From: Bacteroides caecimuris
GTDB lineage: Bacteria > Bacteroidota > Bacteroidia > Bacteroidales > Bacteroidaceae
Assembly: GCF_001688725.2 (NCBI RefSeq)
Contig: NZ_CP015401.2
Span: forward strand, 4,100,001 to 4,164,000
Length of the DNA: 64,000 nt
Direction of reading: 5' to 3'
A program made the position numbers and the translations under genes. The notes under the pieces were generated by a model that saw only the letters and a program-made list of their open reading frames with translations, was not told the origin of the DNA and did no database searches. This document shows, piece after piece, positions 1-46,361 of this stretch; position 1 is the stretch's first letter; each line of letters opens with the position of its first letter.

Positions 1-1071
1 TACTGTCAGCTTCAGGTCATACAGGTTTTGCGGTCCTTTATTGACAGGCCACCACAGTTTTGGAGAGTTAATAATCAGTTGCGGAAACTCTGCGGGGGAG
101 AAGGTTGCTGTTTTTTCTTCTCCACGCATCAGTCGGAAGGTCTTTTCGAAAGTGATATTTTCACCCACAATTTCACCCTTCACCTTGCAACTGACTACCC
201 GGTTACTGGTTGATGGATTGATAATTTCAACCGATACAGTCTCACGAGCCTGGTCATAATCGGGTTTTCGCAATTCAGATTTAACGAAAGGATGGCGTAA
301 TGCTACTCTGCCTGTAGCATAGAGGGAAATATTTTTCCATATACCTGTGTTACGGTCACGGATACCGTCCATAAAGGTAAAGTCCCAACCTACCGTCATC
401 AACATGGTAGTATTCAAACCAATGTTACCGTTTCCACCGTTATGGAATTCGCCGGCTGCTCCCCAAGATTTCGGCTTCGCACTTCCGGGAACATCTACCG
501 GATAGACCTTGATAGCCAGTCCGTTCTTCTCCCCGACTTTCACAAAATCCGTCACATCAATGTAATCCTGAATAAACATACCGTTTATTGTGCTTAACAG
601 GTTGCCATTCACCCATACTTCTGCCCGGTAGTTGATGCCATCCAACTGCAACCAGACAGTCTTTCCCTTGAATGATTGGGGAACAGTAAAATCTGTACGA
701 AACCAATAGGTGTAAAAGTCACGTCCGGTTTCAGAGATATCCGGTATCAATTTAGATTCAATCTTATTATTGATTCCATAATAAGGCTCTGGGTATTTTT
801 GGTTATATACCAAAGAATTCAAAACTGTTCCGGGAACGATGGCCGGCATCCAATTGGCAGTTGCATAATTGGATAACGAAATCTTTTCTCCGGGATCTGT
901 TGCATCTCCTGCTTTAATCATTTTCCACTGGTAGTCGCCCTGATGACCAATTTCAGAATCAAGCCAGATGCGTTGCGCATTTCCGATATTGTTTTTTTCA
1001 TTCTGTGCTGTCACTACTACAGCAAAAAGTAATAATAAAATCGGGAAAAAAGTTTTAGCAATGTTGTGCAT
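1..1071 (-). CDS. Glycoside hydrolase family 2 enzyme, N-terminal part (cut by window edge)
   Basis: The reading frame stays open from ATG at 1071 to the window edge, giving 357 residues. Residues 1-22 are a signal peptide ending VVVTAQ, so the protein is exported. The mature part begins a GH2 sugar-binding jelly roll: a W-x-x-A-x-VPGTV segment followed by PEPYYGIN, then GWDFTFMDGIRDRNTGIW and, near the edge, LWWPVNKGPQNLYDL, which closes the second immunoglobulin-like domain. These motifs resemble the beta-mannosidase / exo-beta-glucosaminidase branch of GH2. The catalytic TIM barrel lies outside the window, so substrate cannot be judged. It has its own promoter with a candidate HTCS operator, placing it in the PUL regulon. 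Confidence 0.88.
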   Translation of the reverse strand, partial: MHNIAKTFFPILLLLFAVVVTAQNEKNNIGNAQRIWLDSEIGHQGDYQWKMIKAGDATDPGEKISLSNYATANWMPAIVPGTVLNSLVYNQKYPEPYYGINNKIESKLIPDISETGRDFYTYWFRTDFTVPQSFKGKTVWLQLDGINYRAEVWVNGNLLSTINGMFIQDYIDVTDFVKVGEKNGLAIKVYPVDVPGSAKPKSWGAAGEFHNGGNGNIGLNTTMLMTVGWDFTFMDGIRDRNTGIWKNISLYATGRVALRHPFVKSELRKPDYDQARETVSVEIINPSTSNRVVSCKVKGEIVGENITFEKTFRLMRGEEKTATFSPAEFPQLIINSPKLWWPVNKGPQNLYDLKLTV

Positions 1072-1197: not shown

Positions 1198-1290
1198 ACT
1201 GCCATATATTGCCCATTTGAAAGTTATCTGGCAATAAACAAAAAGACATTGGTTAATCATTGGTTTGTCTATTACAAATAGTTGGCATGT

Positions 1291-1372
1291 CAGCTATTAA
1301 TAGCTGAATTCTCGGGTATTAATACCTGACACGACAGGTATTAACACCCGAGACCTCAATAATTAACAGCCT
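1291..1372. repeat. 22-bp-pitch palindrome array 1 (TTAA cores)
   Basis: Four 16-bp units (1291-1306, 1313-1328, 1335-1350, 1357-1372) are separated by 6-bp spacers. Unit 1 is a perfect palindrome (CAGCTATTAATAGCTG); unit 2 has a perfect 12-bp palindromic core (GGTATTAATACC); units 3 and 4 are degenerate but keep the central TTAA. Centres fall at 1298.5, 1320.5, 1342.5 and 1364.5, exactly 22 bp apart. Units 2 and 3 are also inverted copies of each other. It fills most of the gap between the fusion lipoprotein and the GH2 operator. Function unknown. Confidence 0.85.
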
Positions 1373-1403: not shown

Positions 1404-3134
1404 TCATTTTGTAAAGACAAATTCTGTCCGTAATCCCCGGTGATCGAACACTTCTTCGAAAGGTCCCCAATCAGGAAGAACGATATCCGATGTTTCCGTG
1501 TTCTCTCCTATTACCTGACAACTTTTCACTTCCATGCGGGGCGACAAGGTATAAAGAGTGAGGTCTAACCGGTCTTTGGTGTCTTTCTCGCTCGGACGCG
1601 GTGTCCATGTGAATCCCGGATGCGTCACAGGGTCCGGATGTATCGTCCGGTAGGCATCACCTTTTATGCCGCCTTCCCACAGGGAACGAGTGGTAGGCCA
1701 CTGAACAACGTATGGGGCAAGACCTGCTGCCAAGGCTTCTTCCGTCCAGTCAAGCCACGATGGTTCGTTGAAGTCACCGGAGAGACAAACAAAAGGAGTG
1801 GTAGATGAATTAAAATCCTCCAGCAGTTTGTCCACCATGCCTTGACGGACTTCTTTATTGACTCTTACTACCTCGTCGACATTGTCCGTAGCGGGATATC
1901 CTCCATAGTCAATGCCGTTCAACTGATAAGGACCGTAAGGTTTGAAAGCGCCATGACAATTCATCACCAACACGACAATCCCCTCTCCTAAGTCGATATA
2001 AACACCATATTTGTTCGGTGTAATCCCCGAGAAAGGATAGCGCGATATAATGCTGCATTTTCCTTGTCCATTGTTGGAGTGAGTATGCACGTAAAGCCCC
2101 TGAGCCTGTATATCAGATTCGGAGAGATTACTGCATTCCTGCGCACAAAGCACGTCCACATCAATTCTATTGAAGTAATCCAACACAACGGAAGTCGATT
2201 TGCCCCATAAGTTTTGTGTAGCAAGTTTCAGCGTTCTGGGTGCTACATGTGTTGCCCAAGTAGCGGCAACTTTTCCGTTTGCGTCAGCAGACATTTCAAT
2301 ATAGTAAGTCTTTCCACTGCCTACATTCAGCGCCAACCCCACTGGTACCGTTACCCGTACGTCCTGTTCTCCAGAAATCGGATGAGTGATGTGCAGCGTA
2401 GCATTCACTCCAAAAGTTCCGGCACACATATCCGGAAGCATATAACATACATCCTCTTGGGGCGCACACTGATAGGTCTTTCGGGTGGCTACCGGAAGAT
2501 TCTCATATTCACTGTAATGTTGAGGTTCGATATGGGCATAAGGAACAGAAGAAGCGGCATCTGCAAAAGTCACGGAGTTCACCGTAATATCCGAAGCCGT
2601 TTGCGGATCCTTTTGCAAAACAACCTTGGATGCACGCGGAGCAAGAGTAACCTGCACCGATGCAGACGCAGCAACTACACGAAGTGTACCATCTTTTTCA
2701 TTCCCTCTACTGACAAGCATCGCCATCGGATCAGCTAACGGCAATTGAGGAGCATACGCTTCTAAATCCCAATAAGTCTTACCGGAAGCCAAGTCCGGGA
2801 ATATGTTATCGGCTGTGGTGCACAAAAACAGGAATCGATAAACGACGCCTTTAGTTACAGAAACCTTTATTTCATTTGCTGCATCTCCTATACTTCCTGT
2901 TTTGTCAAACAGATAATTATATTGATCGTCAAAACAGAATATCTTCCATTTCATTCCGTCCAAAGACACAGAAGCCCTGGTGGAGGACATCGTTAGCCCT
3001 CCCTCCATATTCAGGCTGAAACGTATTTCTTTTGTGTCATCCTCCTTCTGCACATCACTTACATATCCTTCAGCACAAGCCGTGAATAAGCTGGAAATCA
3101 TCAGGAGAATCACAAATAAAGTATTCTTTAGCAT
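1404..3134 (-). CDS. Fimbrillin-like lipoprotein fused to an endonuclease/exonuclease/phosphatase domain
   Basis: A 576-residue lipoprotein with signal peptide and lipobox Cys near residue 20 (SLFTAC). Residues about 35-300 look like a fimbrillin/Mfa-type beta-sandwich region, as seen in Bacteroides surface proteins. Residues about 303-576 are an endonuclease/exonuclease/phosphatase (EEP) fold with expected metal and catalytic elements: QNLWG, CAQEC, SGDFNEP, KDRLDLTLY and FDHRG. This C-terminal half is nearly the same as the stand-alone protein at 16418-17389, so one is a copy of the other. In a PUL such a domain may act as a phosphodiesterase or esterase on a glycan decoration; nucleic acid is another possible substrate. 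It is the last gene of the second SusC/SusD unit. Confidence 0.82.
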   Translation of the reverse strand: MLKNTLFVILLMISSLFTACAEGYVSDVQKEDDTKEIRFSLNMEGGLTMSSTRASVSLDGMKWKIFCFDDQYNYLFDKTGSIGDAANEIKVSVTKGVVYRFLFLCTTADNIFPDLASGKTYWDLEAYAPQLPLADPMAMLVSRGNEKDGTLRVVAASASVQVTLAPRASKVVLQKDPQTASDITVNSVTFADAASSVPYAHIEPQHYSEYENLPVATRKTYQCAPQEDVCYMLPDMCAGTFGVNATLHITHPISGEQDVRVTVPVGLALNVGSGKTYYIEMSADANGKVAATWATHVAPRTLKLATQNLWGKSTSVVLDYFNRIDVDVLCAQECSNLSESDIQAQGLYVHTHSNNGQGKCSIISRYPFSGITPNKYGVYIDLGEGIVVLVMNCHGAFKPYGPYQLNGIDYGGYPATDNVDEVVRVNKEVRQGMVDKLLEDFNSSTTPFVCLSGDFNEPSWLDWTEEALAAGLAPYVVQWPTTRSLWEGGIKGDAYRTIHPDPVTHPGFTWTPRPSEKDTKDRLDLTLYTLSPRMEVKSCQVIGENTETSDIVLPDWGPFEEVFDHRGLRTEFVFTK

Positions 3135-8392: not shown

Positions 8393-11300
8393 TTATAGAT
8401 TAACTGATACGCCTAACGAAAGCGTCTTGTTCAACGGGTATTTCTTTCCGTCCGAACTTCCCAATTCCGGATCCCAATATTTAAACGGAGAGAATGTCAG
8501 CAAGTTGGTTCCGATAAAGAAAACACGTACTTGATTCAAATGAATCTTATTAACCCAAGCTTTCGGAAAAGTATAACCGATATCCAAAGTCTTCAGACGA
8601 AGATAAGAGCCATCTCTCAACCAATAATTAGATTCTTGATAGTTATTTGAATTATTACCATAAGTCAAACGTGGGAATTCCGCATTCGGATCTTCATTCT
8701 CTCCCAAAATCCAACGGTTGCTTTCTGCCATTTCCTTCAAAACATTTCCCCAACCGTCACCACCTTGGAACATAAAGACAGTTGTACCTTTGACAAAGAA
8801 AGACGACTTGCCAGCTCCCTGGAAATGAGCATTGAAATCCAATCCTTTCCATTTGGCCGAAAAGCCAAAGCCATACACCAAGTTAGGACGAGTAGTAGCA
8901 CCGATAGCAACCCGGTCATTTGAGTCAATTATACCATCACCATTAACATCTTTATATTTGATATCACCGGGCATCACCTCACCAAAGGTTTGCTTCGGAC
9001 TATTTCTAATTTCTTCATAGTCTTTAAACAACCCTAAAGCAATAAGTCCTCTTGCCTGATTAACACGATGTCCTTGCGCCAACTTATATTCGTAAATCGT
9101 ATTTTCTTCATCTTTTTCTATCACTTCATTCTTGCTGTAAGTAATATTACCACGTAAAGTAAAATTCACTTTACCAATATTATGTTTGAATGCAAAATGA
9201 CCATCAAATCCTTTTGCCTCTACAATACCAACATTTGCTTTTGATGCATCGCCAATTCCCACTTCATAAGGGATATATGAACGAGTCATATAAATACCAT
9301 CACGACGTTCTTTAAAGTAGTCAACCTCACCAGTCAATTTGTCATTAAAGAAAGAAAAGTCAATACCCAAATCTTGTTTGGTAGCAACTTCCCACGAAAT
9401 GGCAGGAGAAGCCACTGTTGAGTAATATTTTCCATTCCACAATTTTTCTCCAGTTCCTATATCCTCAAAATGGTAAACATTATTATCAGTCGCTATCGAA
9501 TACAAATAGGGGAAACGTACTCTTTTATTGCCTTCATATATAGCATCATTTCCAGTCTTTCCATAAGAATAACGGATTTTCAACATATTCAGCCACTTTC
9601 CGGCAATCTTTTTCATGAAAGGTTCCTCAGCCAGATTCCATGCACCGGAAATAGCTGGGAAGAATCCGAAACGATGATCTTTGTGGAAATTCTCCGAACC
9701 GTTGTATCCAAAATTAAAATCAATAAAATAACGATAATTCCAGTTATAGTTGAAACGTCCGGCTATTCCCTGATTACGATAAGGAATACCATTCTTCAAG
9801 TCTGTACCTATATTTTGAGTAAAAATCTTAGAAGCCTGTGTATACTTCAAAACACCTCCAACATGATGAGTTTTGAAAGCACGACTATAGTGCAGTTCCC
9901 ATTCAAAGAACTCTCTCTTTTCTCCTTCCGAATTGGAAGTTTGCGACATCACTTTCTCGTCTCTGATTTTCGTGAAATTCAATGTTCCGTCCGGCTGACG
10001 ATAACGGTCGGCCTTATAAGCAGCCGGAGATTTATAACGTTTAATCCAATTGGAGTTATACGTATCATATCCGAATCTACCTACAAAACGCAATCCTTTG
10101 GTTACAAAATCCAATTTCTGTTCCAGCGTAAGACTGGTTTGAATATTATTCTTCCAACTTTCATTATATCCGGATTGTGTAGTCATTACCCAAGGATTCA
10201 TATTATCATCCTTATCTGCCCATCCCGGGATTTTTCCATCCGAATATTCTGCTGGCATCATGATAGAATTATATCCCATCAATACAGTCCACAAATTATC
10301 TGTACCACTACCAGTATCATTCTGTTTACGTAAAGAACCGGACACACCAACCTTCAACAAAGTCGTTTTCGTAATATCAATATCCACATTCATACGGTAC
10401 GTCCACTTTCTGAAATGTGCGTTTGTATTATAATCCTTAAGGCTTTTGTCGGTCTTATACATACCTTGTTGATCCTGATAACTTCCGGAAACAAAGTAAC
10501 GCGCTGTTTTACCGCCACCACGCATATTCAATGTAGCACGTGAACTCCAAGCACCGTCACGCAATACCATATCCATCCAATCTACATCCGGGAAACGGTC
10601 CGGGTCAAGTTGTGTACGAAACAGTTCCAATTCTGATGGCGAGTATAAAGCCTCTTGATTTCTTGTCAAACGAGCTTCATTAGCCATAGAAGCGTATGTG
10701 TAGCCGTCTACAAATTCCGGGGCCTTCGTGAAAGTGCTATAGAAGCCTTCAACCTTTGCGTTAATATTGATTTTACCTTCCTTACCACGTTTTGTATTAA
10801 TCAAGACTACACCATTAGCTCCTTTACTTCCATAAATGGCCGTTGCAGAAGCATCCTTCAACACTGTAAATGATTCAATATCTTCCACGCTCACTTCATC
10901 AATGTCACGTTCGAATCCGTCTACAAGTACCAATGCGGCCGTATTAGCACCAAAAGTGGATATACTACGAATCCAGAACTCGGACACACTACCTGGTCGT
11001 CCGGAAGTTTGCATAGCCATTACACCCGGAACAACACCTGCCAATCCATCCACCACAGAAGTGGAAGGAACTGACTTCAATGCATCTACATCCACATTGG
11101 TTATGGCACCGGTCACCGCTATCTTCTTCTGTGCTCCCGTACCTGTAATTACGACTTCGTCAATAACCGTATTTGACGATTCTTTCATCTTTATATTGAT
11201 GGTTCGTTGTTCTTTTACCAATATCACCGCTGTTTCATACCCTACATACGAGAATACAAGCCTGTCATAAGCAGATGCTTTTATCTTGTATTGACCATTT

Positions 11301-29425: not shown

Positions 29426-29507
29426 TGGGTATATATGTCCAGCACGGTGAGTATATATACTCAGCACGGTGGATATATATATACACGACAGTGTGCATAT
29501 ATACCCA
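29426..29507. repeat. 22-bp-pitch palindrome array 3 (TATATA cores)
   Basis: Four 16-bp units (29426-29441, 29448-29463, 29470-29485, 29492-29507) are separated by 6-bp spacers, two of which are identical (GCACGG). Unit 2 is a perfect palindrome (TGAGTATATATACTCA). Centres are 29433.5, 29455.5, 29477.5 and 29499.5. The geometry is the same as arrays 1 and 2, but the core is TATATA rather than TTAA. The array overlaps the last codons of the ApbE gene, and a worn unit may precede it at 29404-29419. Confidence 0.85.
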
Positions 29508-30300
29508 TCAAAGCTTTACGCTGTTCACCGTCAGCGGCAAACAAAGCGGTAGACAATATTTCTCCTATTGCCCCATTCGTTGTAACTACAGATATCTGTC
29601 GGGCGCCTTCCACCAATTTTCCATCTCGAGGAGAAACAATGTGCCGACGTTCAGAAGAGTCATTGCCAGAGGTTGTAAGACACTCATCATGAAGAAGTAT
29701 ATCATTGACTTTCCATCCCGTTCCTACCGGATGATTACCTAATGCAAGGACAGAACTGTTTCCCATATTTATCAATGCATTTTCTATCACGCACTCATTC
29801 AATATGCTTTTAATTGTCTCCAAAGCATATCCCTTGAGGAAACCGGATAAGTTGACAGCAACTCCCGGTCGTGAAAAATAGATACTATGATCTTCGGCTG
29901 ATAAATGGACCGATTGTATCGTGGTCTGATTGTAATTTTCTGAATGGACTGTAATATCAAAACACCCCAGAGTCTTCTCATTATATTCCAGACATAAATC
30001 AATCATTGAATAGAGTTCTTCGCTAAGAACGACCGGAGAAACAAAAGCTGTCCGGTTGACATAAGCCAATTTACTGGTCGGATCATAAAAGTTCGCCATC
30101 TTTTCCAACCGGCACAATGCATCATAAATACGATTGACCACAAGCAACAATTCTCCTTCCGTTTTCTTGCTATACAGGATAATATCCACCCGTGTATGCA
30201 TGGAAAGAAACCAGGCGTAAAGCAGTCCACTGCCTTCACGGGATGGCTTATAGATATGTTGAATAGGGACTTGCATCGTATAGCAGGACAAATTAGGCAC
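29461..30300 (-). CDS. apbE: ApbE-family FMN transferase
   Basis: 279 residues with the ApbE pattern: ANFYDPTSKLAYVN, GCFDITV, VNLSGFLKGYALE, ENALINMGNSSVLALG, CLTTSGNDS and GEILSTALFAADG. ApbE proteins attach FMN to a Ser/Thr in target proteins, usually exported flavoproteins. No signal peptide or lipobox is visible, unlike many ApbE proteins, so the true start or location is uncertain; the Met at residue 9 is another start. The last codons run into the 22-bp repeat array, so the C-terminus (HCRVYIYPPC) is encoded by repeat DNA. It follows the oxidoreductase/DUF1080 cassette by 123 bp, hinting at a redox link, but no flavinylation-site protein is evident nearby. Confidence 0.8.
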   Translation of the reverse strand: MPNLSCYTMQVPIQHIYKPSREGSGLLYAWFLSMHTRVDIILYSKKTEGELLLVVNRIYDALCRLEKMANFYDPTSKLAYVNRTAFVSPVVLSEELYSMIDLCLEYNEKTLGCFDITVHSENYNQTTIQSVHLSAEDHSIYFSRPGVAVNLSGFLKGYALETIKSILNECVIENALINMGNSSVLALGNHPVGTGWKVNDILLHDECLTTSGNDSSERRHIVSPRDGKLVEGARQISVVTTNGAIGEILSTALFAADGEQRKALMGIYAHCRVYIYPPC

Positions 30301-46216: not shown

Positions 46217-46298
46217 CAAGTATTAACATCCGGCATTTCAGGTATTAATAGTTAGAGAAATGACTGTTAACACTTGAGGGAACAGCTGTTAACAGCTA
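46217..46298. repeat. 22-bp-pitch palindrome array 2 (TTAA cores)
   Basis: Four 16-bp units (46217-46232, 46239-46254, 46261-46276, 46283-46298) with 6-bp spacers; centres at 46224.5, 46246.5, 46268.5 and 46290.5. The best unit is the fourth, with a palindromic AGCTGTTAACAGCT core. All units keep the central TTAA, as in array 1. The array stands in the 1.2-kb gene-free stretch before metG, far from any HTCS operator. Confidence 0.82.
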
Positions 46299-46361
46299 TC
46301 AAACGCGATGGCAATTGTGAAATTCTCCATCAGGAGGCACATGATGATGTAAGTTTCAAGG

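What the first reader, a model, noticed from the sequence alone, without database searches (positions are those of the whole stretch)
1291..1372. Array of four palindromes on an exact 22-bp pitch (array 1)
Seen directly: four 16-bp units, one a perfect 16-bp palindrome and one with a perfect 12-bp core, with centres 22 bp apart and 6-bp spacers. Units 2 and 3 are also mirror copies of each other. Two helical turns per unit would put every site on the same DNA face. It lies about 95 bp upstream of the GH2 operator. I know no named element of this kind; candidates are a regulator-binding array, a nucleoid-protein platform or a folded single-stranded structure used in recombination.
Basis: seen in the sequence. 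Interest (0 to 1): 0.78.

Follow-up and report, generated by a model that had tools for sequence, protein, structure and literature searches.

The report
Phased palindrome arrays in Bacteroides
Between genes, some Bacteroides carry evenly spaced rows of small mirror-image DNA sites that look like docking stations for an unidentified protein, and one such row lies where chromosome copying probably starts.

Summary
The array is real, though its fourth unit keeps only the phase and most of the core. It belongs to an element family that I found nowhere described. The window holds two more arrays (29426-29507, 46217-46298). Three TRTTAAYA cores at a 22-bp pitch match 372 times in 75 genus genomes, against 8 for the reversed control. 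Paired positions do not covary and arrays on average fold no better than motif-matched resamples, so hairpins are not what is kept. In orthologues the fixed core changed at 5.2% of sites, the spacer at 19.9%. This fits double-stranded sites for a symmetric DNA-binding protein. Arrays avoid genes and hug 3' ends, so they are not typical promoter operators. Some sit in dispersed MITE-like elements. Arrays cluster within 0.5 Mb of the GC-skew origin, and one orthologous array lies at the skew switch in four genomes. Against an essential role: 48 of 75 genus genomes have no match. The binding protein is unknown; a CI-like repressor, RAYT and canonical parS do not explain the arrays. Best reading: a phased docking platform of chromosome-level function; main rival: a selfish minisatellite.

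The parts
1291..1306 (.). Array 1, unit 1: CAGCTATTAATAGCTG, perfect 16-bp palindrome
1313..1328 (.). Array 1, unit 2: 7 of 8 pairs, perfect 12-bp core
1335..1350 (.). Array 1, unit 3: 6 of 8 pairs, inverted copy of unit 2
1357..1372 (.). Array 1, unit 4: decayed, 2 of 8 pairs, phase and most of the core kept
1247..1284 (.). Two weaker in-phase positions upstream (1247, 6 of 8 pairs; 1269, 4 of 8), possible decayed units
29426..29507 (.). Array 2: four units with TATATA cores, pitch 22 (6, 8, 7 and 6 of 8 pairs)
46217..46298 (.). Array 3: four units with TTAA cores, pitch 22 (4, 5, 5 and 7 of 8 pairs)
1404..3134 (-). Neighbour whose 3' end faces array 1: endonuclease/exonuclease/phosphatase family (PF03372)
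1..1071 (-). GH2 gene (cut by the window end), its start 219 bp from array 1

Best explanation
Array 1 is one copy of a Bacteroides element family: a row of 3-8 double-stranded sites, consensus YARSTRTTAAYASYTR, set 22 bp apart (about two helical turns), so that dimers of an unidentified symmetric DNA-binding protein can sit side by side on one DNA face. The rows lie in intergenic DNA, mostly near gene 3' ends. They probably work at the level of the chromosome (a multi-dimer patch that bridges, organises or titrates) and not as the operator of the next gene. Part of the family spreads inside MITE-like elements, whose copies differ by whole units; part is inherited vertically and clusters around the replication origin. 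Shown: arrays, pitch, symmetric consensus, independent half-sites, conserved core, gene-end location. Inferred: that a protein binds, that it is a dimer, and what binding does.
For: Genome-wide excess over the reversed control. Symmetric consensus with no covariation of paired positions and no inverted similarity between units. Fixed core positions changed at 30 of 581 sites against 116 of 582 in spacers over 18 orthologous pairs; in 4 pairs whose second member was found by a flanking gene and not by the motif, 7 of 132 against 33 of 132. R/Y positions changed 32 times, by transitions only. None of 83 arrays inside a called gene; 16 of 18 non-redundant tandem arrays nearer the 3' end. Clustering around the skew origin.
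Against: No binding protein was found. Arrays are patchy: 48 of 75 genus genomes have no match, among them G043, a fairly close relative. The 18 pairs share loci and are not all independent, and flanks changed less (13.3%) than spacers. For array 1 itself (L166) core and spacer both show no change, 0 of 24 each. Pitch constraint by indels is not significant (P 0.11). At the positions next to the core, G..G and C..C units (41) outnumber G..C and C..G (32), which simple symmetry does not explain. MITE-like carriage fits the selfish rival as well.
Confidence: 0.5

Rival explanations
1. Selfish minisatellite: the arrays are internal repeats of MITE-like elements (transposase sites or plain tandem-repeat dynamics), and single-locus arrays are old remnants without host function.
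For: Family (b): seven copies at different places with terminal inverted repeats of about 50 bp and whole-unit differences. A second dispersed family (a). Neighbouring units resemble each other in direct orientation. Patchy presence and turnover at the purD site. BrickBuilt is a published precedent (PMC4596501).
Against: Core constraint in orthologues outside family (b). Clustering near the skew origin. No terminal repeats seen around array 1.
Confidence: 0.25
2. Operator network of the CI-like repressor (PF07022 plus PF00717) whose gene has an array upstream in some genomes: 16-bp operators with 6-bp spacers, as in lambda operators (recalled).
For: 13 of the 15 genus genomes with at least 5 array matches have a near full-length homologue. 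Array about 300 bp upstream of the gene in G000 and G009 and upstream of it in L053.
Against: G101 has 17 array matches and no homologue, G051 only a fragment; G043 has a 91% identical copy and no array match; 24 of the other 60 genomes have a match, weak and partial ones included. The homologue loci L188-L192 and L186 have no array within the fetched flanks.
Confidence: 0.1
3. Local operators: each array regulates the gene next to it, array 1 the GH2 gene.
For: Array 1 lies 219 bp upstream of the GH2 start.
Against: 3 of 32 non-redundant arrays with both neighbours called are divergent where room predicts 28%; 16 of 18 tandem arrays are nearer the 3' end.
Confidence: 0.1
4. Folded single strand or RNA hairpins (terminator, recombination or stability element).
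For: Array 1 folds well as single-stranded DNA (z -5.88; z -4.2 against column-resampled units).
Against: No covariation within units or between units. Over 38 arrays the mean z is -0.38 with standard error 0.24 against column-resampled and -0.12 with 0.21 against whole-unit-resampled arrays. No Rfam match at gathering threshold in the window except a tRNA.
Confidence: 0.05

Closest known systems
BrickBuilt MITE minisatellite of Porphyromonas gingivalis (PMC4596501; abstract, the identification section and the first of two parts of the homology section read)
   Same: Imperfect tandem repeats of about the same length, always intergenic, about 19 places per genome, in some copies inside an element with terminal inverted repeats, in the same order of bacteria.
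   Different: 23-nt unit, other sequence and other termini (GAGACC..., related to IS5-family ends); no symmetric TTAA or TATATA unit described in the sections read; array 1 has no flanking terminal repeats that I saw.
REP/BIME elements (PMC1525189, passages; PMC2817692, listing with abstract start)
   Same: Short palindromes in many intergenic places, favouring gene 3' ends and convergent pairs; REPs are reported to bind several proteins.
   Different: Pairing is not conserved here; RAYT transposase genes are missing from several array-rich genomes.
Chromosome-organising sites such as parS, SlmA and Noc sites, and DnaA-box clusters (recalled)
   Same: Short symmetric (parS, SlmA, Noc) or clustered (DnaA boxes) sites, several of them near the origin.
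   Different: Other sequences; a canonical-looking parS lies elsewhere; fixed 22-bp rows and MITE-like spread.
Lambda operators and plasmid iterons (recalled)
   Same: Adjacent sites near two helical turns apart for cooperative binding.
   Different: Dozens of chromosomal rows, mostly away from promoters; no replicon or prophage context shown.

Membership tests
BrickBuilt-type MITE minisatellite | Tandem repeat of fixed unit length, intergenic | tested here: met
   22-bp pitch; none of 83 arrays inside a called gene
BrickBuilt-type MITE minisatellite | Carried in an element with terminal inverted repeats | tested here: inconclusive
   Seen by eye in family (b), not seen around array 1; target-site duplications not determined
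BrickBuilt itself | 23-nt unit with its own sequence and GAGACC-type termini | tested here: not met
   Unit is 22 bp, family (b) termini read TTTCACC...GGTGAAAGCG
REP/REPIN with RAYT | RAYT (Y1_Tnp, PF01797) in the genome | tested here: not met
   5 of 24 genomes; absent in array-rich G009, G021, G001, G050, G084 and others, though present in G000, G012 and G100
REP/BIME | Palindrome kept by pairing | tested here: not met
   No covariation
parS of ParB | Canonical TGTTNCACGTGNAACA-like site | tested here: not met
   Array units differ; TGTTTCACGTGAAACG occurs in 8 of 10 genomes, in G000 at 4,428,650, though the pattern count is near control level
CI/LexA-like repressor operators | Arrays occur with the repressor | tested here: inconclusive
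   Associated, with exceptions both ways
Origin-domain sites | Concentration near the origin | tested here: met
   Within 0.5 Mb of the skew-switch array: G000 9 of 16, G050 8 of 17, G021 4 of 4, G100 3 of 4, all listed arrays counted; genomes share orthologues and the test was post hoc
Origin-domain sites | A binding protein with a role in segregation or initiation | not testable with these tools
   Needs affinity purification, ChIP or genetics

The most novel reading that the evidence does not exclude
The vertically inherited arrays form an origin-domain system of Bacteroides: a protein binds phased TTAA palindromes at oriC and at several sites within half a megabase and shapes, counts or segregates the origin region, while MITE-like elements have copied the site elsewhere. 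One orthologous array lies at the GC-skew switch in four genomes, beside a conserved AT-rich block that may be oriC.
Probability: 0.2. Interest if true: 0.85.

Novelty: new variant of a known kind. Interest (0 to 1): 0.62.

Why it matters
If the arrays are docking platforms, an abundant group of gut bacteria has a chromosome-wide binding system that I could not find described (searches, open-access papers only). The short consensus, the fixed pitch and the array at the likely origin give direct ways to find the protein and to study origin organisation in Bacteroides. If they are selfish, they are a further Bacteroidales minisatellite-in-MITE system and a source of intergenic variation between strains.

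Tried and rejected
Hairpin or cruciform: rejected for the family by covariation and resampling. RAYT-driven REP: PF01797 is missing from several array-rich genomes. parS: canonical-looking sites lie elsewhere. CI-like repressor as cognate: associated, with exceptions both ways. Viral origin: the 3-core pattern gave 4 stretches in viral contigs, none of which resembles the Bacteroides consensus by eye; metG gave none. Clusters of the E. coli DnaA box (4 or more within 600 bp, up to 1 mismatch) in 147.5 kb around the skew switch: none. Pitch constraint by indel counts: 6 gaps to 303 substitutions in arrays, 42 to 1020 in flanks, P 0.11. Literature: searches gave BrickBuilt and REPs but nothing on these arrays; the library is open-access papers only. 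(an RNA-binding-protein lead) was listed and not followed.

Limits and dropped rows. A few of the 372 matches are other repeats (G018, G060, G091, G093), and overlapping matches of one array count several times. Loci outside Bacteroides were left out of the unit statistics. One search counted distinct units, not independent arrays. Redundant arrays were dropped (83 to 38; 85 to 23). Of 83 arrays 12, and of 38 six, lay at locus edges and have no context. The origin test used hand-picked lists: dispersed families, a duplicate and the anchor array left out, in G050 also three look-alike arrays that all lie far from the origin; one search repeats it with all of them in (anchor out). In one search, 26 of the 75 matching purD loci were inspected, by eye.

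Full report
What is there. The window lies at 4,100,001-4,164,000 of a 4.84-Mb single-contig genome (G000). Array 1 has units at 1291, 1313, 1335 and 1357 with 8, 7, 6 and 2 of 8 palindromic pairs and an exact 22-bp pitch; two weaker in-phase positions precede it. Two further arrays are in the window: 29426-29507 with TATATA cores and 46217-46298 with TTAA cores. In 100 dinucleotide shuffles the best 4-unit score at pitch 22 was at most 23; the window reaches 27, 25, 25 and 23.

Spread. In G000 two phased TRTTAAYA cores with up to one mismatch occur 88 times against 3 for the reversed pattern. Over 75 genomes of the genus the three-core pattern (up to one mismatch) matches in 27, in all 372 times (my sum of the table) against 8 for the control. 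In a broader draw 10 of 25 genomes of the genus and 0 of 16 from other families of the order matched; in a draw from the family 18 of 298 matched exactly, from 4 of 22 genera. Named genomes with arrays include B. xylanisolvens, B. finegoldii, B. congonensis, B. acidifaciens, B. faecis and B. reticulotermitis; rumen Bacteroidaceae and Prevotella records show a related form with TTGC flanks (capped list). Contig lengths suggest that G009 is the B. acidifaciens record and G100 the B. xylanisolvens XB1A record.

What is conserved. Aligned units give YARSTRTTAAYASYTR, symmetric about TTAA. If the palindrome were kept for pairing, the two sides would covary. They do not: in 165 distinct units of other Bacteroides the Watson-Crick matches at all six outer pairs are below the independent expectation, and in 50 own units no pair is significantly above it (lowest P 0.12); at the R/Y position A-T, A-C, G-T and G-C occur 99, 31, 31 and 4 times in the 165. 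Between units similarity is direct (z 8.9 and 5.0 at distances one and two), not inverted. Folding over 38 arrays equals that of motif-matched resamples within error, though array 1 itself is an outlier. In 18 orthologous pairs outside family (b), some of which share loci, the fixed core changed at 30 of 581 sites, R/Y at 32 of 194 (transitions only), outer positions at 143 of 775, spacers at 116 of 582, flanks at 13.3%. Most of these loci were found through the motif. In the 4 pairs found through a flanking gene the figures are 7 of 132 for the core and 33 of 132 for the spacer, with array 1 itself unchanged in both. Indels are rarer in arrays than in flanks, but not significantly. One oddity stays unexplained: next to the core, G..G and C..C units outnumber G..C and C..G ones, 41 to 32.

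Where arrays sit. None of 83 arrays lies inside a called gene. Of 38 non-redundant arrays 32 have both neighbours called: 18 tandem, 11 convergent, 3 divergent, where intergenic room in the own loci predicts 53, 19 and 28%; 16 of 18 tandem arrays are nearer the 3' end. Array 1 fits: 31 bp from the 3' end of a PF03372 gene, 219 bp from the GH2 start. This speaks against operators of neighbouring promoters.

Turnover. Array 1 is kept in G021 with 94.5% identity over 328 bp; G021 alone of 14 genomes searched has the full neighbouring gene. Downstream of purD the same site holds a TTAA array in G000 and G021, a diverged one in G050 and G012, TATATA units in G042, G048, G049 and G084, traces in G100, G059 and G085, and none in others such as G009, G046, G101, G051 and G001 (read by eye). 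Family (b), seven copies, carries the units between inverted repeats of about 50 bp (one copy lacks the left end); copies differ by whole 22-bp units in the TATATA part, and also by one unit of about 21 bp and one other insertion. Array 3 sits at a junction where most of a CI-like repressor gene is missing, in a region with a second copy at 4.36 Mb.

Origin. In G000 the GC3 skew is -0.27 at 4.284-4.297 Mb, -0.02 at 4.297-4.317 and +0.12 at 4.317-4.337; an array lies at 4,307,254. The orthologous array lies at the switch in G050 (1.327 Mb), G021 (4.068 Mb) and G100 (2.763 Mb). Skew is noisy: single samples elsewhere have the other sign (G000 at 1.2 Mb; several in G100, one of them 40 kb past the switch). 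Beside the array is an AT-rich block that is conserved in nine sequences and may be oriC, though no cluster of E. coli-type DnaA boxes was found. Counting all listed arrays, dispersed families included, 9 of 16 in G000 lie within 0.5 Mb of that array (binomial P 0.002), 8 of 17 in G050 (0.002), 4 of 4 in G021 (0.0006) and 3 of 4 in G100 (0.016). The pattern was noticed after the fact and the genomes share orthologues, so it is a strong hint only. Against an essential role, G043 and 47 other genus genomes have no match.

Tests of named systems. RAYT is absent from several array-rich genomes. A canonical-looking parS lies elsewhere. The CI-like repressor (PF07022, PF00717) occurs near full length in 13 of 15 array-rich genomes, but G101 has arrays without it and G043 has it without arrays. 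The nearest published thing is BrickBuilt of P. gingivalis (PMC4596501), similar in plan and different in unit, termini and symmetry. No search of the paper library found these arrays.

Verdict. The finding is real and larger than stated. The best reading is a phased platform of symmetric protein sites with chromosome-level function (0.5); the main rival is a selfish minisatellite (0.25). The boldest reading not excluded is an origin-domain system (0.2).

Noticed in passing
L027:9800-10330 (G000:C1:4307099-4307629): Convergent intergenic region at the GC-skew switch with an AT-rich block conserved in nine sequences next to a 7-unit array: candidate oriC of these Bacteroides.
   Followed up: partly
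window 29426-29507: Array 2 overlaps the last codons of an ApbE-family ORF (29461-30300), so that its C-terminus is encoded by array sequence.
   Followed up: no
window 46296-46340: Remnant of the 3' end of a CI-like repressor gene directly after array 3; an intact copy lies at G000:C1:4361000-4361710, itself with an array upstream.
   Followed up: partly
L017, L019, L020, L022, L023, L024, L025 (about 9700-10300 in each): Dispersed MITE-like element (family b) with inverted repeats TTTCACC...GGTGAAAGCG and three kinds of repeat unit inside; the CTATAA-type units have a pitch of about 21.
   Followed up: partly
L001, L002, L006, L007, L008, L012, L021, L033: Second dispersed repeat (family a) of more than 300 bp with two phased TTAA cores; in L033 it follows a DDE transposase gene (PF13808, PF01609).
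   Followed up: no
L018:7410-9934 and L029:6980-9883: DDE transposase genes (PF13808 and PF01609, found in the L018 copy) lie within about 100 bp of TTAA units; in L029 the gene is split by another ORF.
   Followed up: no
   Followed up: no
L027:1914-1995: Another row of palindromes at pitch 22 with a different core (TGAGAATAATTTCTCA type).
   Followed up: no
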